This document shows, one piece after another, positions 9,766-51,134 of a stretch of DNA of 64,000 nucleotides (the first letter of the stretch is position 1; every line of letters starts with the position of its first letter). Source of the stretch: Hemileia vastatrix (Eukaryota > Basidiomycota > Pucciniomycetes > Pucciniales > Zaghouaniaceae); NCBI GenBank assembly GCA_030280995.1, contig JASXTE010000001.1, forward strand, positions 26,351,606-26,415,605, read 5' to 3'. The notes under the pieces were generated by a model. The model ran no database searches. It saw only the letters and a program-made list of their open reading frames with translations, and had not been told where the DNA came from. Position numbers and translations under genes: made by a program.

Positions 9766-9912
9766 AAAAAATGTTGGATAAGAGGTGAAAATTGACACAT
9801 AAAGTGTCTAATAACCCAATTATTAGCAAAAATAATTGCGGAAGATAATTGGGGTATAAGGATTTTTATCCACAATTAATATAATTGCTGATCCCTGAAC
9901 ATTGATACCCCC

Positions 9913-10210
9913 TATTATTTCTTATTATTTCTTATTATTTCTTATTATTTCTTATTATTTCTTATTATTTCTTATTATTTCTTATTATTTCTTATTATTT
10001 CTTATTATTTCTTATTATTTCTTATTATTTCTTATTATTTCTTATTATTTCTTATTATTTCTTATTATTTCTTATTATTTCTTATTATTTCTTATTATTT
10101 CTTATTATTTCTTATTATTTCTTATTATTTCTTATTATTTCTTATTATTTCTTATTATTTCTTATTATTTCTTATTATTTCTTATTATTTCTTATTATTT
10201 CTTCTTATTT
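9913..10210. repeat. 10-bp satellite array, about 29 near-identical units
   Basis: The unit CTTATTATTT is repeated head to tail with almost no variation directly against the right end of Harbinger copy 1, and degenerates after about 10200. Such homogeneity suggests recent expansion. The open frame through it (Ile/Ser/Tyr/Phe/Leu repeats) is an artefact of a 10-bp period. Confidence 0.9.
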
Positions 10211-10584
10211 TTAATTATTTATATTGTTTTTTTATTTCTTATGATTTCTCATTATTTCTTATTCTTTTTTCTTTTTCTCTTTTCTCTTTTATTTTTATTT
10301 TTCTTTTCATTTTCTTATTAAATTTTGATGGTTAATGGCAAATAGGGAAGATATATATGCTGGAATAATTTAAATGAACATGTGGGGGGGATTTTATGTG
10401 CTTAGGCACCTTATGTACATAGTCATTTAGGATATAGTCTGTAGTAGGGGCATCCCCTGTTCTCCAGTTCTTTCTGGAGTTCTACAGGCTGACACCATGC
10501 TACAGGTAGGCAATGAAATGGTTCTTTCCAGAGTTCTACAGGCTGACACCGTGCTACACTTTCTCACATAATTTTTCAACATCT
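10211..10584. other. Possible copia 3' end and LTR fragment
   Basis: After the satellite come a pyrimidine tract, then TGTGGGGGGG (polypurine-like, near 10380) and LTR-like sequence. Two ~60-bp tandem copies share GAGTTCTACAGGCTGACACC (near 10475 and 10530). It may be the 3' end of the copia remnant at 135-1950, split off by the satellite and Harbinger block. The segment ends at the ATCCT target site (10585-10589) of gypsy A1. Confidence 0.4.
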
Positions 10585-10589: not shown

Positions 10590-12090
10590 TGTCAGGCTAA
10601 GGTCAAGTACAAGGACGTGAACTAGCTTGAATGGTCAGTTGTCTAGAAGATTTAAATGGTCCTATATGAATACTGTAGTATAAATCCAATAAGTAGTAAA
10701 ATATAATCAAAATTTAAAGGTCTCAGTAATATAATTCTCACTAGTTTTATATATGGCTTACAATCTTTGTAGTTGGTAGAAAAATAGATTTTATAATTCA
10801 GATACTATTCAAAAGTCTTATAAAAGTACTAATTGATATGTATTGTAATTTGTTTGGTTATATTGGTTAATTGTAAATGATAAAGAATGTAGAAATACAA
10901 CCCAAAAACCTCCTCCTTTTATACACACTGAGTTCCCCAATGATTCCCTTGATGTACCACCTAATACACAGTTAATCACGCCTCTAAACAACTAATAGAC
11001 ATTCCCATCAACACTCCCAGTGATCCTTGATATAATTAGAAGAGTAACAACCGCCAAAATCCTGAAATAACAAGGGAAATCCATCAAAATTAAAGAAAAA
11101 GACAAAAAGAGAGTATATGCGTATAAAACAATAATATTAAGGACTAAAGGAGACTTTTTAAGGTTAATAATAGCTTAATAATAAGGGGGATTTACTATAG
11201 AAATAATGGGGCTAATCCTGACATTATACTACGTGAAATTCCCATTCAAAAATAACCAAAATTGACTGAGAAACCACCCAAAAACTTAAAAAAGAGCGTG
11301 AGATGTGGGGTAACTACATGCAGTTCTTGGCAGGCGCTTGCACGGGTAAATCCTTGACTAAAATTAGGCGAGTTTAAGCGTGGTGATGAAATAAAGTGCC
11401 AAGAGTGAGGTTATTAATGAAATTAGTGCATATAAACAGGGTCAATGCATTATTAATTAAGCTAGGACACTAAATAAGCGCCTGTCGCCTATTTTAGTGT
11501 GTTTCCCCACAGTGGGCGTAGAATGTGGGGTAATTATAGTGTGAAAAAGCTAACTTTGCTAAAAATGAAGCTATTCACACGGGAAAAAAGCAGGCAGTAT
11601 GTGGCCAGTACACAGAAGCCATTTCTGGCATAAAAAACACCAAATTTGAAAAGTGTTATTTTTATGCATTTAAATAGCCAAATCAATAGTTCTAAATGAG
11701 CCCAATTGATCTGTCAAAGCGCAATTTTGATATTCTCAATTTTATAGCGCATATAGTCAACTTTTAAGTGAAATAAAGCGCATTTCTTGTTTTTTGCATA
11801 AAACAATGAATATAACAGCTTTAAGTGTACTTAAAAATTATGCAGCCTTATACTTAAGGTTCTTAAGATTACCCTAACATATTCCAACTTAATATTAAGT
11901 ACATAAGACCTATAAAAGGTGGATATATGCGTGTATATAAGGTGTTATAATGGCATTTTTTGTGTATTATCATAATTTTACTTATGTATACTATTTGTGT
12001 ACTCTTATTTATTATTCCCATGTATAGTTCATGTGTTTAACATAACTTATAAGTACTTTTTACTCAGTCCTGGAGATATACAGGCTGACA
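10590..12090 (-). repeat. A1 3' LTR
   Basis: The LTR starts TGTCAGGCTAAGG and ends ATACAGGCTGACA on the plus strand. It matches 18815-20317 almost base for base. Next to it inside the element (12091-12130) lies a short G-rich tract on the minus strand (GGGTGGGCC), the candidate polypurine primer for plus-strand DNA synthesis. Confidence 0.95.
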
Positions 12091-12273: not shown

Positions 12274-15200
12274 TTATTTCTGTTTAAATTTTTTAAGAAG
12301 GGTGGATAAATTAGAAATTTCTTTTTCAGGTATCCATTTATCAAATTCATTTGATTTCCCTTTAAATCTTAGTAAATACTCAGTTCCTTTTTCTTTAGTA
12401 AGGATTCTTTTCTTGAGTATTTTTTCAATCTCTGCTTTTTCCACAATTTCTTCAGGTTGCTTTTTAGGCCTTCCCCTTCTTTTTGGAAATAAGTCAGGAT
12501 CATTTGCATGGTAAGGTTTCAATAATGAGATAGGGAAAACTGGATGTTTCCTATCATATGGAGCATATAATATGACTTCCACTGCATTATTCCCAACCAT
12601 TTTATTTACTACAAAAGGTCCTACAAAGGGATCCTTTAATTTAACATTACCTTGTAAGTTAAAATGTAGTGTTGATATGAGGACCTCATCTCCTTTTTTA
12701 AATTCAAATTCTTTATGAGATTTGTCCCACCTTTTCTTTTCATATTCAAATGCTCTTTGGATGCATTCCTCTGCATGCTTCCTACACATTTGTTGCATAT
12801 GAATAAAGGATTTAGTGCCAGGGTGTATATCCAACCTTGGTAGCTTATTTAAAAGATTTACTGGGGTATTTGGTACATATCCCAGCCAGAGTTCAAATGG
12901 TTTCTTCTCTGTTACAGAATGAGTTGTGCTGTTATAAGCAAATTCAAGGCCAGGAATTAATGTTACCCAGTCATGTGTGAATTTCTCATTGTCTTTGTAT
13001 TCTAATCCAAAGGCACAATATCTTCTGATCATATCTTCAAGAGTTTGTATCATCCTCTCAGCCAGCCCATCAGTTTGTGGATGGTGTGCTGTAGACAATT
13101 TTAATTGACAACCTGATACTTCCATCAAAGATGTCCAGAACTCTGAAGTAAATTTAGGGTCTCTGTCAGAGATTATGGCTTTGGGGAACCCAGCAGTATT
13201 CATCATCTGAGTCCACCATAGTAATGCCAAGTCTTTTGCAGATACCTCTTTATGGGTAGGGATAAACTTACACATTTTTGTTAATCTATCCACTATTACC
13301 CAGCAAGAATTGAAACTTTCTTTTCCTGCTAATGGCAAGCCAGTTACAAAATCCATGTTTATAATTTCCCATGGAGCTTTTGGCTGCTCTATTTGTTGTA
13401 ACAACCCAGCTCTCTTCCCAGTTAATCTTTTAGATTTCTGACAAGAGTCACATGTTTCAATGTATTTTTGTACATCCTCTTTCATGTTTATCCACCAGGC
13501 TGTATTTTTAACTCTGGTTAATGTTTTGTTAAAGTCAAAATGACCAGCTAAGATGTCATCATGACAAGTACTCAACATTAACTCTTTCATAGAAGGTGGT
13601 ATTACTATTACATTGCTTAACTTTTTCCTGTAATATATATATCCATCTTCAATTGATAGTTTACCTTTTTCCAACGCATTTTTATACTTTGGAGGCAAGG
13701 TTTTAATTAATGCACTCATGGAGGCATTTGTTGGATCATTAAGAATGGTAGATAGTTTAGACAAATCTTTATCAGATGAATAATTTTCCAATATAGTTTG
13801 CATAAACTCTTCTTCTAAATCCACTATATAAATCCCAAATATATGTATAACCTCATTTTCAGGTACATAAGCTGGGTTGTCAGCATCATTTGGCAAAGGA
13901 CTTCTTGATAATAAATCCACATTTGAATGCAATGTTCCTGCTCTGTGAGTAATTGTCATTCTTCCTCTGTACTCTTGTACAGCTAGTTGCCATCTAAACA
14001 TGTGCCTATTAGGTGTTTTCATGTTTAGTAATGATTTTACTGCACTGCAATCTGTTATAAGTTCAAACTTCTGGTCTTCCAGATAGTAATGAAGTTTCTC
14101 CAAAGCCCACACCACGGCTAAACATTCTAGCTGTGTGGCACCATACCTTAGTTCTGTCTTTCTTAAGGTTCTTGATATATAACAGATAACTACTTCAGAT
14201 AATTTTCCATTTATTATCTGTTTTTGCTGTAAAGCAGCACCCAAACCTATGAAACTTGCATCAGTGTACAAGATAAAAGGTAGGGTGAAATCTGGCAGTC
14301 CCAATATTGGAGCTGACATCAAACATTCCTTTAATTTGTTAAAGGCGTGCTGTCTTTCATTATTCCAAATGAAAGCTTCATTCTTCCTGATTAATGTTGT
14401 TAAAGGGGCTGCAATGGATTGGTAATTTTTAATATATTGTCTATAATATCCACACATACCTAAAAAACTTTGAACCTCTTTTACATTTTTAGGTATCCCA
14501 ATGTTTTTAATTGCTGCCACTTTATTCTGGTCAACACAAATTTGTAATCCAGATACAACATGTCCAAGTACTTTCAAGGATTGAAATCCAAACTTACATT
14601 TCTTTAATGCAATAGTCATATTAATTTCATCCATTTTTTGAAAGACTCTTTTCAGGTGACTTAAATGGTCATCATATGTTTTTGAAAACACTATGATGTC
14701 ATCAATATAGACCAATAGCCATCCTTCCACCATTTCCTGATGAAAAACACTATCCATCAATTTTTGGAAGACTGAAGGGGCATTCTTTGGGCCAAATGGC
14801 ATTCTCACATACTTATAAATACCCATATGTGTGGTTATTAATAAGTAATTTTGAGAATCTCTTTCCACAGGAATCTGGTGGTAACCCTTGTTCCCATCCA
14901 GACAGGAAATATATTTTGCTCCTTGTAAGGTAGCATGGATAGAAGCTATCCTTGGTAGAGGGTAAATATCATCTACTGTATATGTATTCAGAGCTCTATA
15001 ATCACCACATAATCTTGCCTTATCTTTTTCATAAGAGATTAATACTGGTGAAATGACACAATACTTAGGTGTTGTGTCCACTTTTTCAACAATACCCATT
15101 TCCAACAACAATTTTATATTGTCTTCAATATCTTTCCTTTTTGCAGGAGATGCTGGGTAAGGTTTCTTTTTTAAGCTGCCAGGAATATTATCCAGATTAC

Positions 15201-18147
15201 AGCTTAAAGAGATTTTCATCTCATGGTCTTTGACCAATCCTAGTTCATTTGAGCCATGAGCAAATGCCATAGGATATGATTTAATCAATCTCAAAATATC
15301 TTCTTGTTCAATTTTTGAGAGTTGAGGACTGAAAGAGGCCTTTTGGATTTCATTTTCCAATTCACCCACTTCATTGGTGGTTCTTCCACCTTGCAGTTGT
15401 TCTTCTCTAGGAGAAATGGCATATACTGAATTTTCAGAACATATTTTGAATTTCCTTTTACCATTTACCCCTATGGTGAAACAACTGTTTGCAGGATCTA
15501 GTTTAATGCCAAATTTTGTCAATAAATCATTGCCAATAATAAACCAATCACTACAATTATTATTATCCATTATTACAAATTCACAAACTGCTCTAACATA
15601 TCCATTACTATATTTAAAGAATACAGCAGTTTTGTATTTGCCAATTGGATTTAATACTGAACCAAAACCCCTCCAGTTCTTTGTCTGAACAGGTTCTAGT
15701 TTTTCCTGGTACTTACTATCAAGTTTCATTAATGCATTAAGTGAAACTACGCTACCTGCAGCCCCAGTGTCAAGAATGGCATTCATTTCTTTTCCACATA
15801 TGATAACAGGTGCTCTGATAGGTGTTATTTTGTAAGTATCCTGAGATACATCTTTAATTATTTCAGCTTCCTCTATGGAAGTTAAAGATGTGTCTGTATG
15901 AGGTATAGCATCATTCAGGAACATTATATCCTGTTCTAATACAAATATCTCATTTTCATCATCATTGTAAGATATGTTACTCTTGCAATCCTCACTGGAT
16001 TCCACATTCTCATCTTCATGATTACTAGGTTCAGAATTTTGTGAGGTTTCAATAACATTTATTCTTTTCTTACACGTGTGACCTTTAACCCAAGGTTCAT
16101 TACATTTGTAACAAGTGTTATTTTCTTGTCTCTTAGGGACAAGGGGAGCTGAAGGTTTTTTCTTTTCCACTGGTAACTTACTTGTAGTAGGTTTTACCAC
16201 TTCAACACTTTGTCTGTAATTACTATACTTGGTTTCATATTTGTGGTTTAATAATATCTCATTGCATATATTAATGAATCCAGAGGTGTCTCTGACAGTT
16301 TCAGTTCTAGCTACAATAATGTCTCTAACTGATATAGGCAACTTGTATATTATTTTTTCTTTCCACTCTTCATAATCCATTTTTGGATCCATAGCTTTCA
16401 TGATTTTTATTAAATTCATTAAGAAGACCATGGGTTTATCTCCAGCATTTGGATTATATCTGGCCCTTTCATACAGTCTTTGTTGAGTGATTCTAAATTT
16501 TGGGCCACCAAATTGCCTTTCAATTAGTGCCTTCCATTCATTCCAGGAGTAATTAATTCCCTCACTCAATACAGATTCAAACCATAATAAGGCCACATCT
16601 GTAAATAAAGATATTAACTTTGAAGTAATTTCTTCATCAGGTAATTTGTATGAAAATTTTAAGTTATCAATTCTTTGTATGAATTGTTGCCAATCAGATT
16701 TTGAATCCCCGTCAAAAGAAGGGTACTGATCCAACTTAGGCCAGTTCTTTTGGCTAGTTTTTGCTTCCCTAACCTGAGGAATATTGAGTAATTCACTTAC
16801 TTTAGAAAGATGATCATTTATTTCATCTTTTACTGATTTTATATTTTCAGAGCCCATGACACTATGTTCATGTTCTATCATTGGTTTATCCTCAGAGTGT
16901 TTCATAAAACCTGGTACTCTCTCTACATAAGAGGTATTATCCTTTATTGTTTCAGTATTTTTCAAAATGTTAGCTACTTCAATTTCTACCCTTTGTAACC
17001 TATCTTTTATTACAGGTACTTGAGTCAAAGTATCATTTACATTTGAAAAAGACAATTTTACACGTCCCTCTATTGTAGCCATAATATTCTGAGAGTGTTC
17101 TAATTTACTTTCTAAATTTCTAATCTCAGATTTTAATCTTTTATTCTCATTGATTAATTCATTATTTGAATTTTCAATAATTTTTAATCTATTGGCTGTG
17201 GTACTCAATGATTGTGTTAGCTGTAATAATACATTTTCTGTATTAATGTTTGACTCTTTTGAAAACTCTTCCACTTTTTCAATTCTCAATAATAATTTAC
17301 TTATTATTTTTGATTCCATTGGATTCTCTTTTAAAAAATATTCTATTTTTTCCGTGTCCAATTCAGAAGACTCATTTTCAGGGTCAAGATTTAATTCATT
17401 TGGTTCAATTTTTATATTAATAGTATTTTCCTGGTGATCCATAAAACTATTTACATTGTCCTCATGTAAAGACAAGTTTAACATATTCTGTTCAAATGAA
17501 TAATCCTTTAAATCCTTATCAATAATATCCAATATTTCCTTATCAATCTCATTACCTATAAGTAATTTATTGTCAGGTTGATATAATTGATCATAAGAAG
17601 TTGGATGACTTACCAAGGTCTTATCCCACTTCCTCTGCCTCTCCTTGCCTTTCCCCTGTAAGGGTGACTGCTGGAGCCCTGCTGTTGAGGATTGTTGTAG
17701 TTTTGGGCGTACCAATCCCATTTCCATTTGCTTACTGTAATTTTTTGGTCCTCCTCTTGGGCTGGAGGTGTTGCTATGGAATTGTTGGTTGCTACTGTTG
17801 GTGGTTGAGTCTTTATGTCCACTAGAGCTTGGTTGACTTCTATGAAACCTTGAGCTGCTCTCTTTTCCAGATTGTTGATCTGGTCCACTATATTGTTGAC
17901 TCTTACTGTCAAGGTGTTCATTAGGGTGGATAGGGAGTGAACTTGTTCTTGTAATGTATTTTTTGATTTCTTTATTGAAACCTGCTTTAGAAGCTTTTCC
18001 CTTTCCTCCAGAGACATTGACGGAGTGTTGTTTATTATGGGAGAGTCCTGGCCCTCCATTTGAATGTCCTGTAACAGGTCTTTCAGCTCTAGGTCTTAAG
18101 TTATAAGGTTTTACCTTATTACTTACAATGTCATTGTTGTCACACAT
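12274..18147 (-). CDS. Gag-pol polyprotein of gypsy A1 (1957 aa, intact)
   Basis: It encodes the whole replication machinery in one frame. The start chosen is the ATG at 18147 (MCDNNDI, A at -3); the frame is open 16 codons further upstream. Domains by approximate residue: basic Ser/Gln-rich region (1-180, overlapped by a second ORF), coiled coil (260-410), capsid (470-640), zinc knuckle CYKCNEPWVKGHTC (~680), aspartic protease DTGAA (~793), RT with YIDDIIVFS (~1147), RNase H with LYTDAS (~1295), integrase with H-H-C-C (HDDILAGH...CDSCQKSK, ~1530-1570). The integrase catalytic residues are D (NMDFVTG), D (ISDRDPKF) and E (GLAERM) at ~1600-1700, followed by a C-terminal chromodomain-like end (YLLRFKGK, FDKWIPEKE, ~1905-1955). 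Such chromodomains usually steer integration to marked chromatin. No stop separates gag from pol, so a gag:pol ratio would need another mechanism. There are no visible inactivating changes. Confidence 0.93.
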   Translation of the reverse strand: MCDNNDIVSNKVKPYNLRPRAERPVTGHSNGGPGLSHNKQHSVNVSGGKGKASKAGFNKEIKKYITRTSSLPIHPNEHLDSKSQQYSGPDQQSGKESSSRFHRSQPSSSGHKDSTTNSSNQQFHSNTSSPRGGPKNYSKQMEMGLVRPKLQQSSTAGLQQSPLQGKGKERQRKWDKTLVSHPTSYDQLYQPDNKLLIGNEIDKEILDIIDKDLKDYSFEQNMLNLSLHEDNVNSFMDHQENTINIKIEPNELNLDPENESSELDTEKIEYFLKENPMESKIISKLLLRIEKVEEFSKESNINTENVLLQLTQSLSTTANRLKIIENSNNELINENKRLKSEIRNLESKLEHSQNIMATIEGRVKLSFSNVNDTLTQVPVIKDRLQRVEIEVANILKNTETIKDNTSYVERVPGFMKHSEDKPMIEHEHSVMGSENIKSVKDEINDHLSKVSELLNIPQVREAKTSQKNWPKLDQYPSFDGDSKSDWQQFIQRIDNLKFSYKLPDEEITSKLISLFTDVALLWFESVLSEGINYSWNEWKALIERQFGGPKFRITQQRLYERARYNPNAGDKPMVFLMNLIKIMKAMDPKMDYEEWKEKIIYKLPISVRDIIVARTETVRDTSGFINICNEILLNHKYETKYSNYRQSVEVVKPTTSKLPVEKKKPSAPLVPKRQENNTCYKCNEPWVKGHTCKKRINVIETSQNSEPSNHEDENVESSEDCKSNISYNDDENEIFVLEQDIMFLNDAIPHTDTSLTSIEEAEIIKDVSQDTYKITPIRAPVIICGKEMNAILDTGAAGSVVSLNALMKLDSKYQEKLEPVQTKNWRGFGSVLNPIGKYKTAVFFKYSNGYVRAVCEFVIMDNNNCSDWFIIGNDLLTKFGIKLDPANSCFTIGVNGKRKFKICSENSVYAISPREEQLQGGRTTNEVGELENEIQKASFSPQLSKIEQEDILRLIKSYPMAFAHGSNELGLVKDHEMKISLSCNLDNIPGSLKKKPYPASPAKRKDIEDNIKLLLEMGIVEKVDTTPKYCVISPVLISYEKDKARLCGDYRALNTYTVDDIYPLPRIASIHATLQGAKYISCLDGNKGYHQIPVERDSQNYLLITTHMGIYKYVRMPFGPKNAPSVFQKLMDSVFHQEMVEGWLLVYIDDIIVFSKTYDDHLSHLKRVFQKMDEINMTIALKKCKFGFQSLKVLGHVVSGLQICVDQNKVAAIKNIGIPKNVKEVQSFLGMCGYYRQYIKNYQSIAAPLTTLIRKNEAFIWNNERQHAFNKLKECLMSAPILGLPDFTLPFILYTDASFIGLGAALQQKQIINGKLSEVVICYISRTLRKTELRYGATQLECLAVVWALEKLHYYLEDQKFELITDCSAVKSLLNMKTPNRHMFRWQLAVQEYRGRMTITHRAGTLHSNVDLLSRSPLPNDADNPAYVPENEVIHIFGIYIVDLEEEFMQTILENYSSDKDLSKLSTILNDPTNASMSALIKTLPPKYKNALEKGKLSIEDGYIYYRKKLSNVIVIPPSMKELMLSTCHDDILAGHFDFNKTLTRVKNTAWWINMKEDVQKYIETCDSCQKSKRLTGKRAGLLQQIEQPKAPWEIINMDFVTGLPLAGKESFNSCWVIVDRLTKMCKFIPTHKEVSAKDLALLWWTQMMNTAGFPKAIISDRDPKFTSEFWTSLMEVSGCQLKLSTAHHPQTDGLAERMIQTLEDMIRRYCAFGLEYKDNEKFTHDWVTLIPGLEFAYNSTTHSVTEKKPFELWLGYVPNTPVNLLNKLPRLDIHPGTKSFIHMQQMCRKHAEECIQRAFEYEKKRWDKSHKEFEFKKGDEVLISTLHFNLQGNVKLKDPFVGPFVVNKMVGNNAVEVILYAPYDRKHPVFPISLLKPYHANDPDLFPKRRGRPKKQPEEIVEKAEIEKILKKRILTKEKGTEYLLRFKGKSNEFDKWIPEKEISNLSTLLKKFKQK
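17610..18059 (-). CDS. Overlapping ORF inside gag, +1 frame (149 aa)
   Basis: The ORF lies wholly inside the gag frame, starting at ATG 18059 (MEGQDSP; C at -3, G at +4), 88 nt downstream of the gag ATG. That spacing would suit leaky scanning. The product is a predicted coiled coil (about residues 15-80: LEEREKLLKQVSIKK, INNLEKRAAQGF) with an acidic/Pro linker, a conserved KWKW (111-114), HPYRGK (132-137) and a basic RRGRG tail. A2 has the same 149-codon ORF (37451-37900) and A-prime a recognisable homologue (50615-51040). Between A1 and A2 about 19 of 149 residues differ in this frame, against about 40 of ~147 in the gag frame over the same DNA. The function is unknown. I infer an accessory or alternative Gag-like protein. 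Confidence 0.7.
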   Translation of the reverse strand: MEGQDSPIINNTPSMSLEEREKLLKQVSIKKSKNTLQEQVHSLSTLMNTLTVRVNNIVDQINNLEKRAAQGFIEVNQALVDIKTQPPTVATNNSIATPPAQEEDQKITVSKWKWDWYAQNYNNPQQQGSSSHPYRGKARRGRGSGIRPW

Positions 18148-18468
18148 TTTTACGTGGAATTTAAGGAATTGAAAGTTTAGATATGAAAACTTCAAAAAGG
18201 AGTTTTATCAGTATATTAATACCACTGAAGACAATTTTATTGCTTACTTATTGGTATGAAGTGAATATATAAGTGCCAAAAGTCAAATATGCTTTTATGT
18301 GGTCACTTGATTTAACTGGTCTACAATATGTAGCCGTGTTTTTATATTCAAAAGAAAACAACTGTCAGTATGATTCTTTCTAAATATTTAATGAATTTTA
18401 CAAACCAATAAAAGAGAAGATTAAGAGTCCTGTTAAAAGAAAACAATTAATCAGTTTAATTGGTTATC

Positions 18469-18640
18469 ATCTGCAAAGATCACAAATTTAATTGGTCTAT
18501 TGACAGACTCCCACTAAGAACAATTATATGTTAAATTAGTGGTAAAAAATTTTATCTGCAAAGATCTCAAATTTAATTGGTCTATTAACAGACCCACTAA
18601 TAACAATCATAAGTTAAATTAGTGGTAAAATTGTTGATTC
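18469..18640 (-). repeat. Two ~88-bp tandem repeats in the A1 leader
   Basis: Two copies of a block (ATCTGCAAAGATC, TTTAATTGGTCTATT, TAAATTAGTGGTAAAA) lie between the primer site and gag. On the RNA strand each can fold: CCACTAA pairs with TTAGTGG and GTCT with AGAC. A2 keeps the same two units (38311-38475). The position in the 5' leader suggests an RNA packaging or dimerisation element, which is inference. Confidence 0.65.
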
Positions 18641-18795
18641 AATATCACAATTTTATAATATAACAGGGCTTCTTTTTCTAAAATCACTATATAAGTGACC
18701 CCAACCTGTTGTAATTATCCAAATATTTTTATAGGGATATTATTTACGTGCACCTTCTCTTGAAAATTTCACTTACCAGGATTATAACAGAATTC

Positions 18796-18814: not shown

Positions 18815-20317
18815 TGTCAGGCTAAGGTCAAGTACAAGGACGTGAACTAGCTTGAATGGTCAGTTGTCTAGAAGATTTAAATGGTCCTATATGAATACTG
18901 TAGTATAAATCCAATAAGTAGTAAAATATAATCAAAATTTAAAGGTCTCAGTAATATAATTCTCACTAGTTTTATATATGGCTTACAATCTTTGTAGTTG
19001 GTAGAAAAATAGATTTTATAATTCAGATACTATTCAAAAGTCTTATAAAAGTACTAATTGATATGTATTGTAATTTGTTTGGTTATATTGGTTAATTGTA
19101 AATGATAAAGAATGTAGAAATACAACCCAAAAACCTCCTCCTTTTATACACACTGAGTTCCCCAATGATTCCCTTGATGTACCACCTAATACACAGTTAA
19201 TCACGCCTCTAAACAACTAATAGACATTCCCATCAACACTCCCAGTGATCCTTGATATAATTAGAAGAGTAACAACCGCCAAAATCCTGAAATAACAAGG
19301 GAAATCCATCAAAATTAAAGAAAAAGACAAAAAGAGAGTATATGCGTATAAAACAATAATATTAAGGACTAAAGGAGACTTTTTAAGGTTAATAATAGCT
19401 TAATAATAAGGGGGATTTACTATAGAAATAATGGGGCTAATCCTGACATTATACTACGTGAAATTCCCATTCAAAAATAACCAAAATTGACTGAGAAACC
19501 ACCCAAAAACTTAAAAAAGAGCGTGAGATGTGGGGTAACTACATGCAGTTCTTGGCAGGCGCTTGCACGGGTAAATCCTTGACTAAAATTAGGCGAGTTT
19601 AAGCGTGGTGATGAAATAAAGTGCCAAGAGTGAGGTTATTAATGAAATTAGTGCATATAAACAGGGTCAATGCATTATTAATTAAGCTAGGACACTAAAT
19701 AAGCGCCTGTCGCCTATTTTAGTGTGTTTCCCCACAGTGGGCGTAGAATGTGGGGTAATTATAGTGTGAAAAAGCTAACTTTTCTAAAAATGAAGCTATT
19801 CACACGGGAAAAAAAGCAGGCAGTATGTGGCCAGTACACAGAAGCCATTTCTGGCATAAAAAAACACCAAATTTGAAAAGTGTTATTTTTATGCATTTAA
19901 ATAGCCAAATCAATAGTTCTAAATGAGCCCAATTGATCTGTCAAAGCGCAATTTTGATATTCTCAATTTTATAGCGCATATAGTCAACTTTTAAGTGAAA
20001 TAAAGCGCATTTCTTGTTTTTTGCATAAAACAATGAATATAACAGCTTTAAGTGTACTTAAAAATTATGCAGCCTTATACTTAAGGTTCTTAAGATTACC
20101 CTAACATATTCCAACTTAATATTAAGTACATAAGACCTATAAAAGGTGGATATATGCGTGTATATAAGGTGTTATAATGGCATTTTTTGTGTATTATCAT
20201 AATTTTACTTATGTATACTATTTGTGTACTCTTATTTATTATTCCCATGTATAGTTCATGTGTTTAACATAACTTATAAGTACTTTTTACTCAGTCCTGG
20301 AGATATACAGGCTGACA
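18815..20317 (-). repeat. A1 5' LTR
   Basis: Near-identical partner of 10590-12090, followed by the ATCCT target duplication at 20318-20322. It would hold the promoter for minus-strand transcription. I did not find a single convincing TATA box to assign. Confidence 0.95.
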
Positions 20318-20772: not shown

Positions 20773-21764
20773 TGTCAAGCTGAGGTCAAGTACAAAGACG
20801 TGAACTAGCTTGAATGGTCAGTTTTCTAGAAGATTTTAATGGTCCTATATGAATACTGTAGTTTAAATCCAACATGTAGTAAAATATAATCAAAATTAAA
20901 GGTCTCAGTAATATCATTCTCACTATTTTTATATATGGCTTACAATATTTTTAGTTGGTAGAAAAATAGATTTTATAATTGAGATACTATTCAAAAGTCC
21001 TATAAAAGTACTAATTGATATTTATTGTAATTTATTTGGTTATATTGGTTAAATTGTAATGATTAAGAATGTAGAAACATGACTTAAAAACCTCCTCCTT
21101 TTATACACACTGAGTTCCCCAATGATTCCCTTGATGTACCACCCAATGCACAGTTAATGACGCCTCCAAACCACAAATAAACATTCCCATCAACATTCCC
21201 AGTAACCCATGACATGATTAGAAGAGTAAAAAACATCAAAATCCTGTATTAATAAGGAAAATCCATCAAAATTAAAGAATAAGATAAAAGAGAGTATATG
21301 CATATCAAACAATAATATAAAGGACTAAAGAGGAAATTTTTAAGGTTAATAATAGCTTAATAACAAGGGAGATTCACTGTAGAAACAATGGGGCTAATCC
21401 TGACATTATACTACGTGAAATTCCCATTCAAAAATACCCAATATTGACTGAGAAACCACCCAAAAACTCGAAAAAGAGCGTGAGATGTGAAGTAACTACA
21501 TGCAGTCCTTGGAAGGCGCTTGCACGGGTAAATCCTTGACTAAATTTTGTTGGATTTAAGCGTGGTAGTGAAATAAGGCGCCAAGAGTAAGGTTATTAAT
21601 GAAATTAGTGCATATAAACAAGGTCAATGCATTATTAATTAAGCTAGGACACTAAATAAGCGCCTGTCGCCCATTTTAGTGTGTTTCCCCACAGTGGGCG
21701 TAGAATGTGGGGTAATTATAGTGTGAAAAATCTAACTTTGCTAAAAATGAAGCTATTCACACGG
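20773..21764 (-). repeat. A2 3' LTR, first part
   Basis: Matches A1 LTR from its start to the CACACGG block, where gypsy B is inserted; the LTR resumes at 33429. The ACGG at 21761-21764 is duplicated at 33429-33432. Confidence 0.9.
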
Positions 21765-22862
21765 TATGGTAAGGTAAACTCTTACAGTCGCCTTGCTGTA
21801 AGAAGAATCCAGAGGAGATGTGTGGATTTAGTGGAAAACCCCGTCCTTCCAATAAAAATAACAAAATGGGAATTCTAAATCACTAAGCTAACCAGTCTAC
21901 TTGGATCTGATTGATAAAAATAATGAAACTCTAAAATATTTAACGCTTATTGAGATTTAAAGAATGTGGCTGTTGAGAAAAGAAATACTGATAACAACAA
22001 TTAAGGTGTACCAGTGAAAGATCTGAAAAGATTGACTTTTATGTTTTTATAATAATTTGAATTTTTATGAGACAGCAATAATCAAGTCCCAGTGATGAAG
22101 ACCTTTCTAAAGATACCCTGTATGAAGTGTGATTTAAATTGTTGAGTAGTATTTCTAAAATGTTATATATAAAATATAAAGTTATAAGGGTATTACAATT
22201 TATTTAATTTGTTGAGTAATTAAAAATGAGACTGTGGTGGTTAAAGATTAAGCTGTATGTTGTCTGATTGTATGATGATCCCCAATTTCGAGTCTGAGAG
22301 GCTCTTAAGTATACCTAGTCACCTGCCTAAGTTTCCCCTCCAGAGCTCAGCCAGAGCCTATCCGGAGCCCGTATGGAGTCAAAGCGGAGTCCGTCTGGAC
22401 TCAATTAGAGCCTTTAAAACTATAATAAAAAATCTAGAAGAATTACACATAATAGAACCACTTCCCCTTTACATTCCAAACTAATTTTCGTAGTCTGCGC
22501 AGCTCTAATCACCCCGTTAAAATTCATCAAAGTTAAGTAATTTCTAAAAACGTAAATATTTCTATAAATCTTTAAAATTCATTTAAAAATATAAGAAAAA
22601 TAGTAAAAATTCTGGAAAAATTTCCCAAGGTTCTTGAGTGACTCGACTTGATACTTATAAATTATTCAGACCGTAAAAATAAGTTTTCTCTGTAAAATAA
22701 ATTGTTTTCGCGTAGGCATTTGCTTTTAACCAATTTCTTCATATTTAAAACTCAAATAAATTAAATAAATCCCTTTTTAAAATAATAACATCGTCAATCT
22801 TTACGCGCTGTAATAACTCCATTTACGTACTTAGGTGCCATACTAAACTTTAGGCTACCACA
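21765..22862 (-). repeat. Gypsy B 3' LTR
   Basis: Plus-strand ends are TATGGTAAGG and GGCTACCACA; on the coding strand it begins TGTGGTAGCC. A hairpin (CTTACAG...CTGTAAG) lies near 21778-21799. It differs from the 5' LTR mainly by lacking one 22-bp unit of the GGAGTC repeat near 22370. Confidence 0.9.
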
Positions 22863-22875
22863 TCCTCCCTCCAAT
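22863..22875 (-). promoter_or_regulatory. Gypsy B polypurine tract
   Basis: On the coding strand TTGGAGGGAGGA directly precedes the TGTGG start of the 3' LTR. This is the classic position and composition of the primer for plus-strand DNA synthesis. Confidence 0.75.
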
Positions 22876-23500
22876 TGAGAATGTCCCCATTCGTAAAACT
22901 TTGCATAAGTGATTGAGCAATTCCAAAAGAATTATCTTTTATAATAAAATAATTTGATAAATTTGTTTTAGCTGGTCTTTTTTTTAATTTTTTAAAATAA
23001 AAATGTTGTTTCTTTCTTCTCTGGCTTGATATAACATAAAATAAAATAAATCTTGTGATGATTCCACTTCTGAGAGCAAGGTTTGAATCCCTTATGACTC
23101 CCATTAACCAGTCTTCCTTCTTGTCACAGCATTGAGAGAGTGGATCTTCCAATGAGCCGAATACTCCTGATTCCAACCTCATAGGGCCCCCCCTGAGCCG
23201 AATTCTATGATTCCAATCTTGCCATAAAATCCTCCAAGCTTCACACCAAAAAAAAATGGCCTAACTATGAGGCACTAAAAAAATCATTCCCTAAAATCCA
23301 ACTACCATCCTAACTTCTGATTCCTTCATCACAATTTTCAAACTTTGCTATGCAGCAAACCCATAAAATACTTTTGCCAGGCTTCCAATAATAATATTAA
23401 CTTTAAACCATGTTGAAGCGCCACAAATTTCACCTAATTAACCATTATGCTTTCCTTAGCATCATCACCACCTAGAATTTTAACCTCCTAAAGCTTATCA
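22876..23500. other. Start of the B 3' region, no gene supported
   Basis: Mixed-composition DNA between the polypurine tract and the hairpin repeats. A 110-codon minus-strand frame (22850-23182) overlaps the LTR edge and shows no recognisable domain. I treat it as noncoding. Confidence 0.4.
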
Positions 23501-23527
23501 GCACCCAATTCCAGAAATAATTGAATA

Positions 23528-24225: not shown

Positions 24226-24239
24226 CTATCTTGAAGTAA

Positions 24240-25250: not shown

Positions 25251-25312
25251 AAAAAAAGATAGTCTATCATCGTTGCAGAGGTTGATAAGATTTTTTTTTT
25301 AAAAAAAAACAT

Positions 25313-25570
25313 CATAGTTTATCCTCATTGAGGAGGAATCCATAAAATTTCATAAATGTCATAGTTTATCCTCATTGCGGAGAAATCCATAAAATTTTGT
25401 AAATGTCATAGTTTATCCTCATTGCGGAGGTTAATAAAATTTGATAAATGTCATAGTTTATCCTCATTGCGGAGGGATCCATAAACTTTCGTCGATATCA
25501 TAGTTTATCCTCGTTGCAGAGGAACCCATAAAATTTCATAAATGTCATAGTTTATCCTCATTGCGGAGGA
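25313..25570 (-). repeat. Six 47-bp tandem hairpin repeats at the end of pol
   Basis: Units start at about 25313, 25360, 25407, 25452, 25499 and 25546 (CATAGTTTATCCTCATTGCG, then GAGG). Each contains TCCTC-ATTGCG-GAGGA or a close variant, a 5-bp stem with a 6-nt loop. The last unit overlaps the 3' end of the integrase frame, whose final residues (LRNEDKL) are encoded by the repeat. Confidence 0.85.
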
Positions 25571-29336: not shown

Positions 29337-29546
29337 TTTGCCTTTTTCACCATTTTTAAATTTAATAGTAAAAACAGGGTAAATCCAATAAACATGTAGA
29401 AAAGTCCAAAACGTATTTGCACTCCAAAGTAATATTAACAGAAAATAATTGAGAATCCACTTGAATTATCTCCAAGTGAGCTGACCTATTGCAATCTGGG
29501 ATCTCATCCTGAGGAGAGATTACAACATTAGAGTGATCAGCCCCTG

Positions 29547-36707: not shown

Positions 36708-38009
36708 TTAATGTTCAATCATTGGTTTATCATCAGAGTGTTTCATAAAAACTGGTACTTTTTGAACATAAGAGGTATTATCTTTTATTTTTTCAGTATT
36801 TTTCAAAATGTTAGCTACTTCAATTTCTACTCTTTGTAACCTATCTTTTATTACAGGTACATGAGTTAAGGTTTCATTTACATTTGAAAAAGACAATTTT
36901 ACACGTCCCTCTATGGTAGCCATAATATTCTGAGAATGTTCTAATTTATTTTTTAAATTTTTAATCTCAGAGTTTAATCTTTTGTTTTCATTGATTAATT
37001 CATTATTTGAATTCTCAATAACTTTTAACCTATTGGCTGTTGTACTCAATGATTGTGTGAGGTTTAATAATATACTTTCTGTATTATTGTTGGACCCTCT
37101 AGAGAATTCTTCCAATTTTTCAATTCTTAATAATAATTTACTAATTATTTTTGATTCAATTGGATTTTCTTTTAGAAAATATTCAATTTTTTCTGTGTCC
37201 AATTCAGAAGACTCATCATCAGGGTCAAGATTTAATTCACTTGGTTCCATTTTTATATTAATAGCATTTTCCTGGTGGTCAATAAAACTATGTACATTGT
37301 CATCATTTAAAGAAAAGTTTAACATGTTATTTTCAAATGAATAATTTTTAAAATCCTTATCAATTATATCCAATAACTCTCTATCACTTTCATTACCTAT
37401 AAGTAATTCATTGTTAGGATTATATAATTGATCCTGAGAAGATGGATGACTTACCAAGGTCTTATTCCATTTCCCCTGCCTCTCCTTGGCTTTCCCCTGT
37501 AAGGGTGACTGCTGGAGCCCTGCTGTTGAGGGTTGTTGTAGTTTTGGGTGTACCAATCCCACTTCCATTTGCTTACTGTAATTTTTTGATCCTCCTCTTG
37601 GGATGGAGGTGTTGCTATGGAACTGTTGGGTGCCACTGTTGGTGGTTGAGCCTTTATTTCTACTAGAGCTTGATTGACTTCTACGAAACCCTGAGCTGCT
37701 CTTTTCTCCAGATTGTTTATCTGGTCCACTATATTGTTTACCCTTATTGTCAAAGTGTTCAGTAGAGTGGAGAGGGAGTGAGTTTGTTCTTGTAAGGTAT
37801 TTTTTGTTTTCTTTATTGATACCTGTTTTAAAAGTTTTTCTCTTTCCTCCAGAGACATTGGCGGAGTGATGGTGTTTATGAGGGACTCCTGGCCCTCCAT
37901 TTGAATGTCCTGTACCAGTTTTCTCAGCTCTAGGTCTTAAGCTATAAGGTTTTGCCTTACTACTCACAATATCATTGTTGTCACACATTTTTACGTGGAA
38001 TTTAATCAA
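36708..38009 (-). pseudogene. A2 gag N-terminal part (433 aa, truncated by a stop)
   Basis: It is the same gene as the A1 gag start (FHVKMCDNNDIV, YSLRPRAEK) with the coiled coil (KLLLRIEKLEEFSR, ENKRLNSEIKNLK). The frame stops at 36708, before the capsid, which continues in the same frame in pieces. It differs from A1 at about 16% of residues downstream of the nested ORF, but about 27% inside the overlap. Confidence 0.88.
37451..37900 (-). CDS. Overlapping ORF inside A2 gag (149 aa, intact)
   Basis: This is the A2 copy of the nested ORF at 17610-18059, again 149 codons in the +1 frame of gag, from ATG 37900 (MEGQESL) to the same stop. The coiled coil (LEEREKLLKQVSIKK, VDQINNLEKRAAQGF), KWKWDWY, HPYRGK and basic tail are unchanged. 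About 19 residues differ from A1, most of them conservative. It has stayed open although pol of this element is badly decayed. Part of that may simply be chance given its age. Confidence 0.65.
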   Translation of the reverse strand: MEGQESLINTITPPMSLEEREKLLKQVSIKKTKNTLQEQTHSLSTLLNTLTIRVNNIVDQINNLEKRAAQGFVEVNQALVEIKAQPPTVAPNSSIATPPSQEEDQKITVSKWKWDWYTQNYNNPQQQGSSSHPYRGKPRRGRGNGIRPW

Positions 38010-38310
38010 AGAATTGAAATTTGAGATTTTTAAAACTTCAAAAAGGAGTTTTATCAGTACTTATTAATACCACTGAAGAAAATTTTCTTGCTTACTTGTA
38101 GGTATAAAGTGAATTTAGAAGTGCCAAAAGTCAAATATGCTTTTATGTGGTCACTTGATTTAACTGCTCTACAATATGTAGCCCTGTTTTTATATTTAAA
38201 AAAGAAAATTTGTCAGTAAGATTCTTTCTAAATATTAAATGAATTATACAAACCAATAAAATGGGATTAAGAGTTCTGTTAAAAGAAAACAATTAATCAG
38301 TTTAATTGGT

Positions 38311-38475
38311 TATCATCTGCAAAGATCACAAATTTAATTGGTCTATTGTCAGACTCCCACTAAGAACAATTTTATGTTAAATTAGTGGTAAAAATTTTAT
38401 CTGCAAAGATCACAAATTTAATTGGTCTATTGACAGACCCACTAATAACAATTATATGTTAAATTAGTGGTAAAT
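38311..38475 (-). repeat. Two tandem leader repeats in A2
   Basis: Counterpart of the A1 repeats at 18469-18640 with the same AATTGGTCTATTG and TTAGTGGTAAA blocks. Confidence 0.6.
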
Positions 38476-38657
38476 TTTTTGATTCAATATCATAATTTTA
38501 TTATATAACAGGGCTTCTTTTTCTGAAATCACTATATAAGTGACCCCAACCTGTTTTAATTATCCAAATATTTCTATAGGGATTTTATTTACGTGTACCT
38601 TCTTTGAAATTTTTACTTACTGGATTATAACAGAATTCTTGAGGAAAGGCCCCCAAT

Positions 38658-48346: not shown

Positions 48347-51134
48347 CTAAAATTTTTTCTTTTTATACTTCTTTAACAGAGTAGGAAGATTTGAGATTTC
48401 TTTTCCAGGTATCCAAGCATCATGTTCAGATGATTTGTTCTTATATCTCAATAAATATTCAGTACCTCTTTCAGAAGTGATAATTCTATCATTGAGAATT
48501 TTATCAATTTCTGCAGTTTCTGTGACTTCCTGAGGGTTTTTCTTAGGTCTTCCCCTTCTTTTGGGAAAAACATCACAATTAGAAGTATAAGGCTTAAGCA
48601 AAGAAATGGGAAAAACAGGATGTTTCCTATCATATGGAGAATACAATACAACTTCTACTGCATTATCTCCAACCATTTTGTAACAACAAATGGTCCCACA
48701 AAAGGATCTTTTAATTTGTTGTTACCTTGTAGATTGAAATGAAAAGTAGATATCAACACTTCATCACACTTGTTAAATGTGTATTCTTTATGGGATTTAT
48801 CCGATCTCTTCTTTTCATATTAAAATGATTTTTCAATACATTTTTGAGCATGATTTCTGCATAGCTGTTGCATTTGCATAAAAGATTTTACACCAGGGTG
48901 TAGTTCCAACTTAGGTAATTTATAATTGAGAGTTTGTGCAAGAGTGTTTGGGACATAACCTAACCAAAGCTCAAAAGGCTTTTTCTCAGTGACAGAATGA
49001 GCAGTGCTATTATATGCAAGTTCAAGACCAGGCAATAGAGTGACCCAGTCATGAGTAAATCTGTCATTGTCTTTATATTCTAATTCAAGGGCAAAATACC
49101 TTCTAATCATATATTCCAGAGTTTGAATCATTCTCTCAGCTAGACCATCAGTCTGAGGATGGTGAGCTATAGACAACTTTAACTCAAATCCACAAATATC
49201 CATCAAAGAGGTCAAAAACTCAGATTTAAATTTTGGATCTCTATCAGAGATAATGGCTTTTGGAAATACAACAATATTAAACACGTAAATCCACCATAAG
49301 AAGGCTAATTCCTTTGTGGATACATCTTTGTGGTGAAAATAAATTTTCACATTTTGGTGAATCTATCCACTATTACCCAACAAGAGTGATAACTGTCTTT
49401 ACCTGCTACAGGAAGACCAGTGACAAAATCCATGTTAATTTTTTGCCAAGGAGCATCAGGTGATTTAATATGTTGTATCAAATCATACTTTCTGCTAGCC
49501 CATAAGTTTGTGGATGGTGTGCTGTAGAAAGTCTTAATTGACACCCTGAAACATCCATAAGTGATGTCCAGAAATCAGAAGTAAACTAAGGATCTCTGTC
49601 TGAAATTATTGCGTTGTGAAAACCTGCTATATTTAACATTTAGGTCCACCATAAAAAATTGAAGTCTTTTTCAGAAACCTCTTTGTGGGTAGGAATAAAT
49701 TTACACATTTTTATAAATCTATCTACAATTACCCAGCAGGAGTTATAACTTTTATGCCCTGCTATTTCCAAACCTGTTACAAAGCCCATGTAAATTATTT
49801 CCCATGGAGCTTTTGGTTGCTCAATTTGTTGTAATAAACCAGCTCTTTTGCCTGTTAATCTCTTAGATTTTTGACAAGAATCACATGTCTCAACATATTT
49901 TTGAACATTCTCAGACATGTTTATCCGCCAAGCTGTGTTTTTTACTCTGGTTAATGTTTTATGGTAGTCAAAATGACCTGCTAAGATATCATCATGACAT
50001 ATACTTAACATTAACAGACACTTTGATTTGTCTGCAAAAAAGATAACTTAGTTCTTGATTCACTTTTCAATAAGTGTGCTTCATACAACTTTTCTGACTC
50101 ACAGAATTTGTTTGAAAGTTCACTATATTTATTCCTCAATGAATAATAATTAAGAGTTAGAGACATTTGTCAATTCTCTAATTATTTAGTTTGTGTTGCC
50201 AGTTGAGAAATGTTCAACTTTAAGGATGAAGTTGTATCACTTTTGAGCTTAACTGTCTATTCCTCACAATTAGTCATTCTATTCCACAATGCTGAAACAA
50301 TTCTATGGACAGTTGGATTATTGTTAAAATACTCCATGTCTTCCTTCTCAATTCTCTCACTATCTTGTGAACTTCTCATCTCACTAGTAAGTGGTGGCAA
50401 CTGAGGATTAACTGTATTATTATTATAAATAGTACTGTTGTTATTGACAAAAGATAAGTCAGGTGTATCTACATCAAAACTAATTTTCTCAAGTCCTCCT
50501 CAATTCTCTGTACAGATTTCACATCAATAATATTACCTATATTGTAATTATCAGTATTTTGTTCAATATGAGAGGGTAATCTACTTACCACGGGATTAGT
50601 GCCAGTCCTTATTTTTAGCCCTTTTGCTTTCCTTTGTAGGGGTGAGCTGAGGAAGTTTGATGAGGAGGAGGATCTCTGCTGCAGCTGTGACTGGACCATT
50701 GTTGATGGAACAAATACCACTTCCATTTGTCTACCAGTATTTTCTCCTGGGAATGATGTGATCCTCCTGGGGTAGGGGGTTTCTGACTTGGCTTGCCTCT
50801 CTTTAGCTCTGCCAAGATTTGATTCATCTGTTGGAATCCTAACTTGTAATTGTTCTGCAATCACTCTACTTCCTTCAGCATGAGAGACTTTGATTCCTTT
50901 AACTTCAGGACCTGTTTTTCAAGATTGGACAGCTGATCCTGCAGAGGAAGAGACATCTTTTTTACTGTAATCTTTTTTAAGAGGGTGTCTTTTTCCTTTA
51001 TACTCATTTGCTCTGGCTGGGGGTATGATTGACCCTCCATGGTTATGCCCTGGAGCAATGTTTTTATTAGCTTTAGAACTGGTATTATAAGCAGGCTTTT
51101 CACTTACATTGTCCTGGGGAGCACCCATATTCAT
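48347..51134 (-). pseudogene. A-prime gypsy polyprotein remnant (rearranged)
   Basis: A divergent member of the A family. From its 5' end: gag start (ATG 51134, MNMGAPQDN) with one stop before 50919, a gag segment to about 50470, then a junction near 50015 that skips capsid, protease, RT and RNase H and enters the integrase zinc region (HDDILAGHFDYHKTL...CDSCQKSK). The integrase core is present twice: one partial copy (50011-49500) is fused to a second that restarts before NMDFVTGLPVAGKDS (49544) and runs on (ISDRDPKFKSEF, GLAERMIQTL) to a chromodomain-like end (YLLRYKNK, HDAWIPGKE). Many stops. Inactive. Confidence 0.85.
50615..51040 (-). pseudogene. Overlapping ORF homologue in A-prime gag (one stop)
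   Basis: In the +1 frame of gag, ATG 51040 (MEGQSYP; A at -3 and G at +4, a strong context) opens a frame that aligns with the nested ORFs of A1 and A2. Shared features are the MEGQ start, MSIKEKDTLLKKITVKK against MSLEEREKLLKQVSIKK, LQDQL, GFQQMNQILAELK against GFIEVNQALVDIK, the KWKW motif, and SSAHPYKGK against SSSHPYRGK. One in-frame TGA at about 50861 breaks it. The similarity at this distance, in a frame that is not gag, argues that the protein is real. Confidence 0.65.

What the first reader, a model, noticed from the sequence alone, without database searches (positions are those of the whole stretch)
17610..18059. A second, better-conserved protein is encoded inside gag in another frame
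Seen: a 149-codon ORF in the +1 frame of gag is present at full length in A1 and A2 and, with one stop, in the divergent A-prime (50615-51040). By hand alignment A1 and A2 differ at about 19 of 149 residues in this frame but about 40 of ~147 in the gag frame over the same bases. The gag frame downstream differs at only ~16%. A-prime keeps MEGQ, the coiled-coil spacing, KWKW and HPY-x-GK. Inferred: in this segment selection acts mainly on the nested frame, so the retrotransposon makes an extra coiled-coil protein, perhaps by leaky scanning from the gag AUG 88 nt upstream. I know of no described equivalent in Ty3/gypsy elements.
Basis: partly seen in the sequence, partly recalled or inferred. 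Interest (0 to 1): 0.88.

Follow-up and report, generated by a model that had tools for sequence, protein, structure and literature searches.

The report
Hidden second gene inside retrotransposon gag
A jumping gene in a probably rust-like fungal genome carries a second, better-conserved protein gene hidden in another reading frame of its gag gene, and stripe-rust relatives appear to show the same overlap, which points to an unrecognised helper protein of these elements.

Summary
On the minus strand, a 149-codon ORF (17610-18059) lies in the +1 frame of gag in Ty3/gypsy chromovirus copy A1, and again in A2 (37451-37900). A1 and A2 differ at 19/149 nested residues but 40/150 gag residues over the same bases. 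Nested omega is about 0.32, like gag-pol downstream (0.38); gag residues in the overlap show no constraint. Degenerate A' matches A1 strongly in the nested frame (z 32), weakly in gag (z 2.7; 5.9 against A2). Yet the gag frame stays open more than chance allows, so both frames look maintained. Direct protein search found no relative of the nested protein. Through pol I found Puccinia striiformis gene models that read matching DNA in two frames over up to 203 codons, the second being gag +1. The layout is alike (helical part, tryptophan motif, basic tail), but sequence homology to the window's nested protein is not shown. Best reading: a real, dual-coded accessory gene, possibly made by splicing from the gag AUG (conserved 58-nt intron-like segment) and possibly acting on genomic RNA, as CERV of Cer1 does. 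Expression and function are inferred.

The parts
17610..18059 (-). Nested ORF of copy A1: 149 aa, predicted helix 17-84, KWKW region, basic RG-rich tail; +1 frame of gag
12274..18147 (-). gag-pol ORF of A1 from ATG 18147 (1957 codons; gag with a CCHC-like motif by eye, then protease, RT, RNase H, integrase, chromodomain)
37451..37900 (-). Nested ORF of copy A2, 149 aa, 87% identical to A1
36708..37988 (-). gag frame of A2, open across the overlap, then stopped; about 2.0 kb of pol is missing downstream
50588..51040 (-). Nested-frame remnant of divergent copy A' (three stops)
18069..18126 (-). Putative intron 1 of A1 (GTAAGT...ACAG, 58 nt); removal joins 7 gag codons in frame to the nested ORF
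   Evidence: sequence inference only
37910..37967 (-). Putative intron 1 of A2 (GTGAGT...ACAG, 58 nt)
51050..51107 (-). Putative intron 1 of A' (GTAAGT...CTAAT...CCAG, 58 nt)
17556..17613 (-). Putative intron 2 of A1 at the nested stop (GTAAGT...CTGAC...ATAG, 58 nt)
37397..37454 (-). Putative intron 2 of A2 (58 nt, CTAAC branch-like site)
50537..50588 (-). Putative intron 2 of A' (52 nt, CTGAT branch-like site)
18430..18776 (-). Putative leader intron of A1 (347 nt, GTAAGT...CTGAT...TTTTCTTTTAACAG); holds both AUGs of the leader
38276..38620 (-). Putative leader intron of A2 (345 nt), same features
10590..12090 (-). 3' LTR of A1 (TG...CA, flanked by ATCCT; ends set by eye)
18815..20317 (-). 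5' LTR of A1, 99.8% identical to the other LTR

Best explanation
The nested ORF is a genuine second gene of the retrotransposon, overlapping the start of gag in the +1 frame. SHOWN from sequence: selection preserves its amino acids between A1 and A2 and it is recognisable in A'; the gag frame over the same bases is kept open while its residues are nearly free to change; a matching +1 arrangement is seen in Puccinia striiformis gene models. INFERRED: the gag frame there is a basic, disordered linker, while the nested frame makes a separate small protein (long helix, tryptophan motif, basic arginine/glycine-rich tail). INFERRED, about 50%: it is made from a spliced RNA in which a 58-nt intron joins the gag AUG and six further codons in frame to the nested ORF, unspliced RNA giving Gag-Pol and the genome. 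INFERRED, about 30%: the protein oligomerises through the helix, binds the element's RNA through the tail and controls the fate (export or packaging) of unspliced genomic RNA.
For: A1/A2 substitutions by gag codon position in the overlap are 26/12/7 against 48/33/123 in the rest of the compared gag-pol (P 1.9e-7); nested omega 0.32, gag-pol codons 480-1090 0.38; nested-silent changes that alter gag are 24.5 observed against 10.3 expected. A1 to A': nested z 32, gag z 2.7. Given the nested peptide, the gag frame should hold about 13 stops in A1 but has 0 (P printed 0.0000, 20,000 redraws; synonymous-permutation P 0.0003 in A1, 0.0027 in A2). Two-frame test: A1 control 243; P0031 vs P0101 308 over 203 codons; P0044 vs P0040 265 over 194 codons; maximum of 300 shuffles 18.4. 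Hidden GWNP region in frame +1 of P0020, P0035 and P0105. Predicted helix 17-84, 63 residues at pLDDT 90 or more, against a disordered gag N-terminus. Intron-like cassettes in the first 700 nt: 2 (loose branch site) against 0.036 expected, 1 (strict) against 0.018; in-frame join in three copies; leader AUGs 2 against 11.6 expected, both inside the putative leader intron.
Against: Only two intact copies of the nested frame were available, 87% identical; A' is dead. No transcript, footprint or peptide was seen. No database relative of the nested protein, none in viral contigs. The A-family nested protein is not detectably homologous to the P. striiformis nested readings (hhalign probability below 1% for two families, 4% for a third). 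Intron 1 in A1 and A2 lacks a strict CTRAY branch site, and A1 has five further GTRAGT sites in gag-pol (8 in all, 3.7 expected), some also kept in A2, so the motif alone is not special. The intron criteria were set after seeing the sites. P. striiformis evidence rests on gene models of different paralogous loci, not on DNA, and which of the two frames is gag's was judged by me from how the models run on into gag. In the first 87 nt of gag, before the nested ATG, gag constraint is not clear either (6/29 residues differ, omega 0.76).
Confidence: 0.72

Rival explanations
1. Same dual-coded gene, but expressed by leaky scanning or reinitiation from the unspliced RNA: ribosomes pass the gag AUG (or translate a 1-3 codon mini-ORF) and start at the nested AUG 88 nt downstream.
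For: In A1 and A2 only one AUG, that of a 3-codon mini-ORF in the nested frame, lies between the gag AUG and the nested AUG; A' has a start-stop at the corresponding place. The A' nested AUG sits in ACCATGG.
Against: The gag AUG has A at -3 and the nested AUG has C at -3 in A1 and A2; it leaves the GTRAGT/AG pairs around the nested ORF unexplained.
Confidence: 0.3
2. The nested ORF is the only real product here; Gag starts downstream and the upstream gag frame is open by accident or is a relic.
For: In the overlap the gag frame shows no residue constraint, and the 29 codons before it show none clearly; the gag frame is hardly recognisable in A' (z 2.7 and 5.9).
Against: Zero gag-frame stops where about 13 are expected; gag-side readings of P. 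striiformis relatives stay open over 194-203 codons of a like overlap; several relatives have a basic motif near the gag start (read by eye).
Confidence: 0.12
3. The nested ORF is the 5' exon of a spliced ORF1-Gag-Pol fusion, as several P. striiformis gene models are drawn.
For: P0101, P0030, P0025 and P0027 join the nested frame to gag in one model; a GTAAGT site lies at the nested stop in A1, A2 and A'.
Against: In A1, A2 and A' removing putative intron 2 still gives TGG-TAA, a stop (read by eye from the sequences and the sites). Gene finders bridge frames with introns.
Confidence: 0.08
4. No second protein: the open nested frame is a by-product of gag codon usage and recent common ancestry of A1 and A2.
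For: Permuting synonymous gag codons leaves the nested frame open in 3% (A1) and 10% (A2) of trials.
Against: The codon-position pattern and omega, the A' conservation and the recurrence in other elements are not explained by this.
Confidence: 0.04

Closest known systems
CERV of Cer1 (Ty3/gypsy, Caenorhabditis; PMC10309623)
   Same: A Ty3/gypsy accessory protein with part of its coding sequence in a frame other than gag's; its first exons share the gag frame; helical leucine-zipper part; made by splicing while genomic RNA stays unspliced (abstract, passages and sections 9 and 15 read).
   Different: [quoted passage not shown] it has a Cys-rich loop, whereas the nested protein has no cysteine. 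No sequence comparison was made; splicing is unproven here.
Overlapping ORF1/gag of Puccinia striiformis Ty3/gypsy elements (found here)
   Same: Same +1 frame, same place upstream of the gag helical region and capsid, same layout of helical part, tryptophan motif and basic tail.
   Different: The ORF1-frame segments also run upstream of the overlap in the gene models (about 530 aa in one family); no detectable sequence homology to the A-family nested protein.
Additional ORFs (aORFs) of LTR retrotransposons (PMC7264820, part 1 of 3 read)
   Same: An extra gene besides gag-pol, kept in most copies.
   Different: [quoted passage not shown] this one lies inside gag in another frame.
HIV-1 Rev type RNA export factors (as described in PMC10309623, section 15; otherwise recalled)
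   Same: Possible analogy only: an oligomerising protein that would act on unspliced RNA.
   Different: No homology, no evidence of RNA binding or export here.

Membership tests
Ty3/gypsy chromovirus | protease, RT, RNase H, integrase and C-terminal chromodomain in this order in one polyprotein | tested here: met
   Pfam hits in that order; RT, RNase H, H2C2 and Chromo above curated cut-offs, RVP and rve just below theirs
Ty3/gypsy chromovirus | paired LTRs with short target duplication | tested here: met
   A1 LTRs 99.8% identical; ATCCT on both sides (duplication read by eye)
Overlapping (dual-coded) gene | purifying selection on the inner frame | tested here: met
   omega 0.32 in the overlap; P 1.9e-7 on codon positions
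Overlapping (dual-coded) gene | outer frame also maintained | tested here: met
   no stops against about 13 expected; residues themselves not constrained
Overlapping (dual-coded) gene | both products made | not testable with these tools
   no RNA, footprint or peptide data
CERV-type accessory protein | made from a spliced mRNA using a frame other than gag | tested here: inconclusive
   intron-like segments and in-frame join in three copies; no transcript seen
CERV-type accessory protein | Cys-rich loop | tested here: not met
   no cysteine in the A1 nested protein
CERV-type accessory protein | sequence homology to CERV | not tested
   CERV sequence was not fetched
CERV-type accessory protein | needed for nuclear export of genomic RNA | not testable with these tools
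   needs an experiment
P. striiformis ORF1/gag overlap family | ORF in frame +1 of the gag N-terminus | tested here: met
P. striiformis ORF1/gag overlap family | sequence homology incl. GWNP motif | tested here: not met
   hhalign probability below 1% against F1 and F2, 4% against F3; A1 query above its shuffle maximum in 0 of 24 relatives
aORF between pol and 3' LTR | location between pol and 3' LTR | tested here: not met
   lies inside gag

The most novel reading that the evidence does not exclude
Rust-fungus Ty3/gypsy elements carry an ancient second gene written in the +1 frame of the gag N-terminus. It encodes an RNA-handling factor, produced by a small alternative intron that starts just after the gag AUG, so that one AUG serves two proteins and splicing switches between accessory protein and Gag-Pol/genome. 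This would be a fungal counterpart of CERV/Rev that arose independently and forces gag to begin with a disordered linker.
Probability: 0.3. Interest if true: 0.88.

Novelty: new variant of a known kind. Interest (0 to 1): 0.74.

Why it matters
Ty3/gypsy elements are usually read as gag-pol only. A conserved dual-coded gene at the start of gag in rust-type elements would mean that gene models of their Gag N-termini (as in the P. striiformis records here) are mixtures of two proteins, that these elements have an accessory function for which I found no assay in print (searches named in the full report), and that alternative-frame accessory genes, known in Cer1, evolved in fungi too. It also makes a question testable with existing RNA data: how do intron-bearing fungal retroelements get unspliced RNA out of the nucleus?

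Tried and rejected
Direct protein search with the nested protein: 22 candidates shared words, none at E 10 or better. Gag residues 1-760: 7,978 candidates scored, none at E 1 or better; yet gag residues 181-760 do match relatives found through pol when compared directly. Viral contigs: four scans, no relatives. Bacterial/archaeal genomes: one scan, two loci: a 64%-identical pol fragment in a Streptomyces record, probably contamination, with no gag seen in its ORFs, and a 31% match in a MAG, not looked at further. Solved structures: one weak match, E 0.48. Pfam on the nested proteins: none for A1, one weak torovirus spike hit below cut-off for A2, treated as coiled-coil noise.

A frameshift joining the two frames was considered by eye: a run AAAAAAT exists, but a -1 shift there from gag leads to the third frame, so this was rejected. 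Element B (25545-32408) was checked as a possible relative with a separate upstream ORF; its 265-aa ORF shows no similarity by eye and no Pfam hit. A by-eye resemblance of P0035's gag frame, read +1, to the KWKW region did not pass the formal test (A1 query above its shuffle maximum in 0 of 24 relatives). In one search, besides the clear hits, some scores exceed their own maximum of 20 shuffles by about 2 or less (F1 query: P0009, P0106, P0050, P0101; F2 query: P0043, P0031); I treat these as noise. The two-frame test also flags shorter pairs (17-55 codons, for example P0033/P0090) upstream of the overlap, which look like gene-model disagreements, so short scores alone are not proof; weight is put on the 160-203 codon cases. 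For one search I picked 37 of the 120 listed relatives, by gag matches; two were left out for a short N-terminus and a few with short or weak gag matches (for example P0034, P0049, P0058, P0060, P0069, P0070) were never picked. Of the 35 used, 16 gave a pair above 22 and 19 gave none; the test needs a partner read in the other frame, so this is not evidence of absence.
Full report
What is there. The window holds three copies of one Ty3/gypsy chromovirus family on the minus strand. A1 (LTRs 10590-12090 and 18815-20317, 99.8% identical, ATCCT on both sides) has an unbroken gag-pol ORF of 1957 codons from the ATG at 18147. A2 has the same family layout, but its gag frame is stopped at 36708 and about 2.0 kb of pol is missing. 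A' (about 48350-51130) is divergent and dead. The window is AT-rich (32-33% GC over sixteen 4-kb steps). In a pol search 2105 proteins matched; of the 120 listed, the closest are two metagenome proteins (61% and 59%), then mostly Puccinia striiformis (about 44-49% over the whole stretch), with Austropuccinia at 41% and some plant, alga and animal-record hits lower. A rust-type fungus is therefore likely; the species is not identified.

The nested ORF. At 17610-18059 (minus) a 149-codon ATG-to-TAA ORF lies in the +1 frame of gag, 88 nt after the gag ATG. A2 has it at 37451-37900. There are no gaps between A1 and A2 over the first 3277 bases of gag-pol.

Which frame is selected. Between A1 and A2 the overlap has 45 substitutions, at gag codon positions 1/2/3 in the numbers 26/12/7; in the rest of the compared gag-pol (bases 540-3270) they are 48/33/123 (chi-square P 1.9e-7). 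Counting silent and replacement changes against a mutation model, omega is 0.32 for the nested frame and an apparent 4.0 for gag in the overlap, against 0.58 and 0.33 for the next two 450-base pieces of gag and 0.38 for codons 480-1090. Changes silent in the nested frame but altering gag are over-represented (24.5 observed, 10.3 expected); those silent in gag but altering the nested frame are under-represented (4.0 observed, 11.4 expected). The nested third-position rate (0.173) is not below the third-position rate elsewhere (0.135, Fisher P 0.21), so gag residues there are not visibly constrained. No substitution made a stop in either frame (about 2 expected in each), too few to tell. In the 85 bases before the nested ATG, 9 substitutions show no clear gag constraint (omega 0.76) (all). 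Against A', local alignment gives z = 32 (A1) and 30 (A2) for the nested frame and z = 2.7 (A1) or 5.9 (A2) for gag.

The gag frame is nevertheless kept open. Redrawing synonymous codons for the nested peptide gives a mean of 13.4 gag-frame stops in A1 and 12.1 in A2; zero, as observed, had a printed frequency of 0.0000 in 20,000 draws each. Permuting the actual nested codons gives P = 0.0003 (A1) and 0.0027 (A2). The third frame has 16 stops, close to expectation. The reverse test (nested frame open given gag) is weaker: 0.0017/0.0069 by redrawing, 0.03/0.10 by permutation. So the residue evidence points to the nested frame and the stop evidence to the gag frame: both look used.

Relatives. 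No database protein matches the nested protein, and none was returned for gag residues 1-760. Pol relatives gave a way in. I asked whether two predicted proteins could be two readings of one DNA stretch. With A1 gag against A1 nested as a positive control (243) and 18.4 as the maximum of 300 shuffles, P. striiformis P0031 (taken as the gag frame) pairs with P0101 (308, 203 codons), P0030 (249), P0025 (213), P0027 (191, 160 codons), P0037 (165), P0029, P0033 and P0090 (131 each) and P0104 (116). P0044 pairs with P0040 (265, 194 codons), P0036 with P0040 (45) and P0035 with P0105 (62). In these pairs the second reading is +1 of the one I take as gag, as in the window. In one search the first family's GWNP region was found hidden in frame +1 of P0020 (metagenome; 25.2 against a maximum of 15.5 in 20 shuffles), P0035 (25.7 against 12.0), P0105 (24.3 against 12.7) and, in its own family, P0031 (50.3 against 15.9): 4 of 24 relatives. 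The second family's region was found, in its own family, in P0044 (34.5 against 16.2) and weakly in P0036 (16.7 against 13.2): 2 of 24. The window's own KWKW region was found in 0 of 24. The two P. striiformis families share GWNP followed by a basic tail (hhalign P 0.0023, probability 13%). The A-family protein shares the layout but not detectable sequence. So the arrangement recurs; common descent of the A-family gene with the others is not shown. Caveats: these are gene models of different paralogous loci, gene finders hop between frames, and which reading is gag's was judged from how the models run on into gag; no DNA could be fetched.

The protein. A model from two sequences gives one helix, 17-84 (63 residues at pLDDT 90 or more), a less certain short helix around KWKW (107-121) and a disordered tail. 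Residues 35-85 have a heptad pattern (0 of 2000 shuffles). The last 40 residues have pI 11 and charge +6.5. The gag N-terminus (179 aa, single sequence) models as disordered, mean pLDDT 54, and is basic (+17).

How it may be made. In A1 and A2 a GTRAGT follows the first 21 bases of gag, and an AG ends 9 bases before the nested ATG, 58 nt in all; A' has the same spacing counted from the second of its two in-frame ATGs (51128). Removing the 58 nt joins the gag AUG in frame to the nested ORF without a stop in A1 and A2; the A' join was read only to its first 23 codons. The branch-like site is CTAAT in A' but only CTGA-type in A1 and A2. At the nested stop a second GTAAGT is followed by strict CTRAY and TAG, 58, 58 and 52 nt long; removing it still leaves TGG-TAA (by eye). 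In the first 700 nt of A1 two cassettes occur with a loose branch site (0.036 expected) and one with a strict site (0.018 expected), none in the other 5.2 kb; the criteria were chosen after seeing the sites. GTRAGT alone is not confined to these places: A1 has eight, 3.7 expected. The leader has 2 AUGs where 11.6 are expected (P 0.0007), both inside a 347-nt GTAAGT...TTTTCTTTTAACAG segment that recurs in A2 with its two AUGs. Against pure leaky scanning, the gag AUG has A at -3, the nested AUG has C at -3 in A1 and A2, and a 1-3 codon mini-ORF lies between. Splicing is my preferred route at about 50%, scanning or reinitiation about 30%.

What it may do. A helix for oligomerisation plus a basic tail, in an element whose genomic RNA would carry removable introns, suggests a factor that binds the element's RNA and controls export or packaging. 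The nearest described case that I saw is CERV of Cer1 (PMC10309623: abstract, passages and sections 9 and 15 read): made from a spliced mRNA with exon 4 in a frame other than gag's, and required for export of unspliced genomic RNA. CERV is larger, has a Cys-rich loop, and its C-terminal half lies after pol; the nested protein has no cysteine. I claim an analogy, not membership, at about 30%.

Novelty. Ten literature searches in the open-access library listed no paper whose title or abstract start describes a gag-overlapping gene in fungal Ty3/gypsy elements. Five of the ten returned no paper at all, so the wording was narrow; only two papers were opened; subscription papers are not covered. 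Upstream ORFs in Ogre and brtp in Botrytis elements are recalled and were not confirmed (one search found nothing; none of the 8 papers listed contained BRTP).

Noticed in passing
window 21765-33204: A second Ty3/gypsy element (B; protease-, RT- and integrase-bearing parts in separate ORFs) sits in the 3' LTR of A2, splitting it (20773-21764 and 33429-33941). A PBS-like TTGGCGCCCAACGTGGGG follows its upstream LTR (read by eye).
   Followed up: partly
window 9803-10300: A tandem array of 10-bp units lies next to the 3' LTR of A1.
   Followed up: no
window 25260-25616: A tandem repeat of about 47 bp, six copies in register, at the end of element B's integrase ORF.
   Followed up: no
window 3395-4132 and 6677-7297: A DDE_Tnp_4 transposase ORF and a Tet-like 2OG-Fe(II) oxygenase ORF (PF20515) on the plus strand.
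   Followed up: no
L001 76-2310: A record labelled Streptomyces fumigatiscleroticus (NZ_BMQF01000089.1) encodes rust-like Ty3/gypsy pol, 64% identical to A1 in the best segment; probably contamination of a bacterial assembly.
   Followed up: partly
window 18134-18123, 37975-37964, 51109-51104 (minus): A 1-3 codon mini-ORF (MTL*, MIL*, M*) in the nested frame shortly after the gag ATG in all three copies; its stop overlaps the GTRAGT site.
   Followed up: partly
P0031, P0101, P0030, P0025, P0027, P0040, P0044: P. striiformis gene models mix two reading frames at the Gag N-terminus, so annotated Gag starts of these elements look unreliable.
   Followed up: yes
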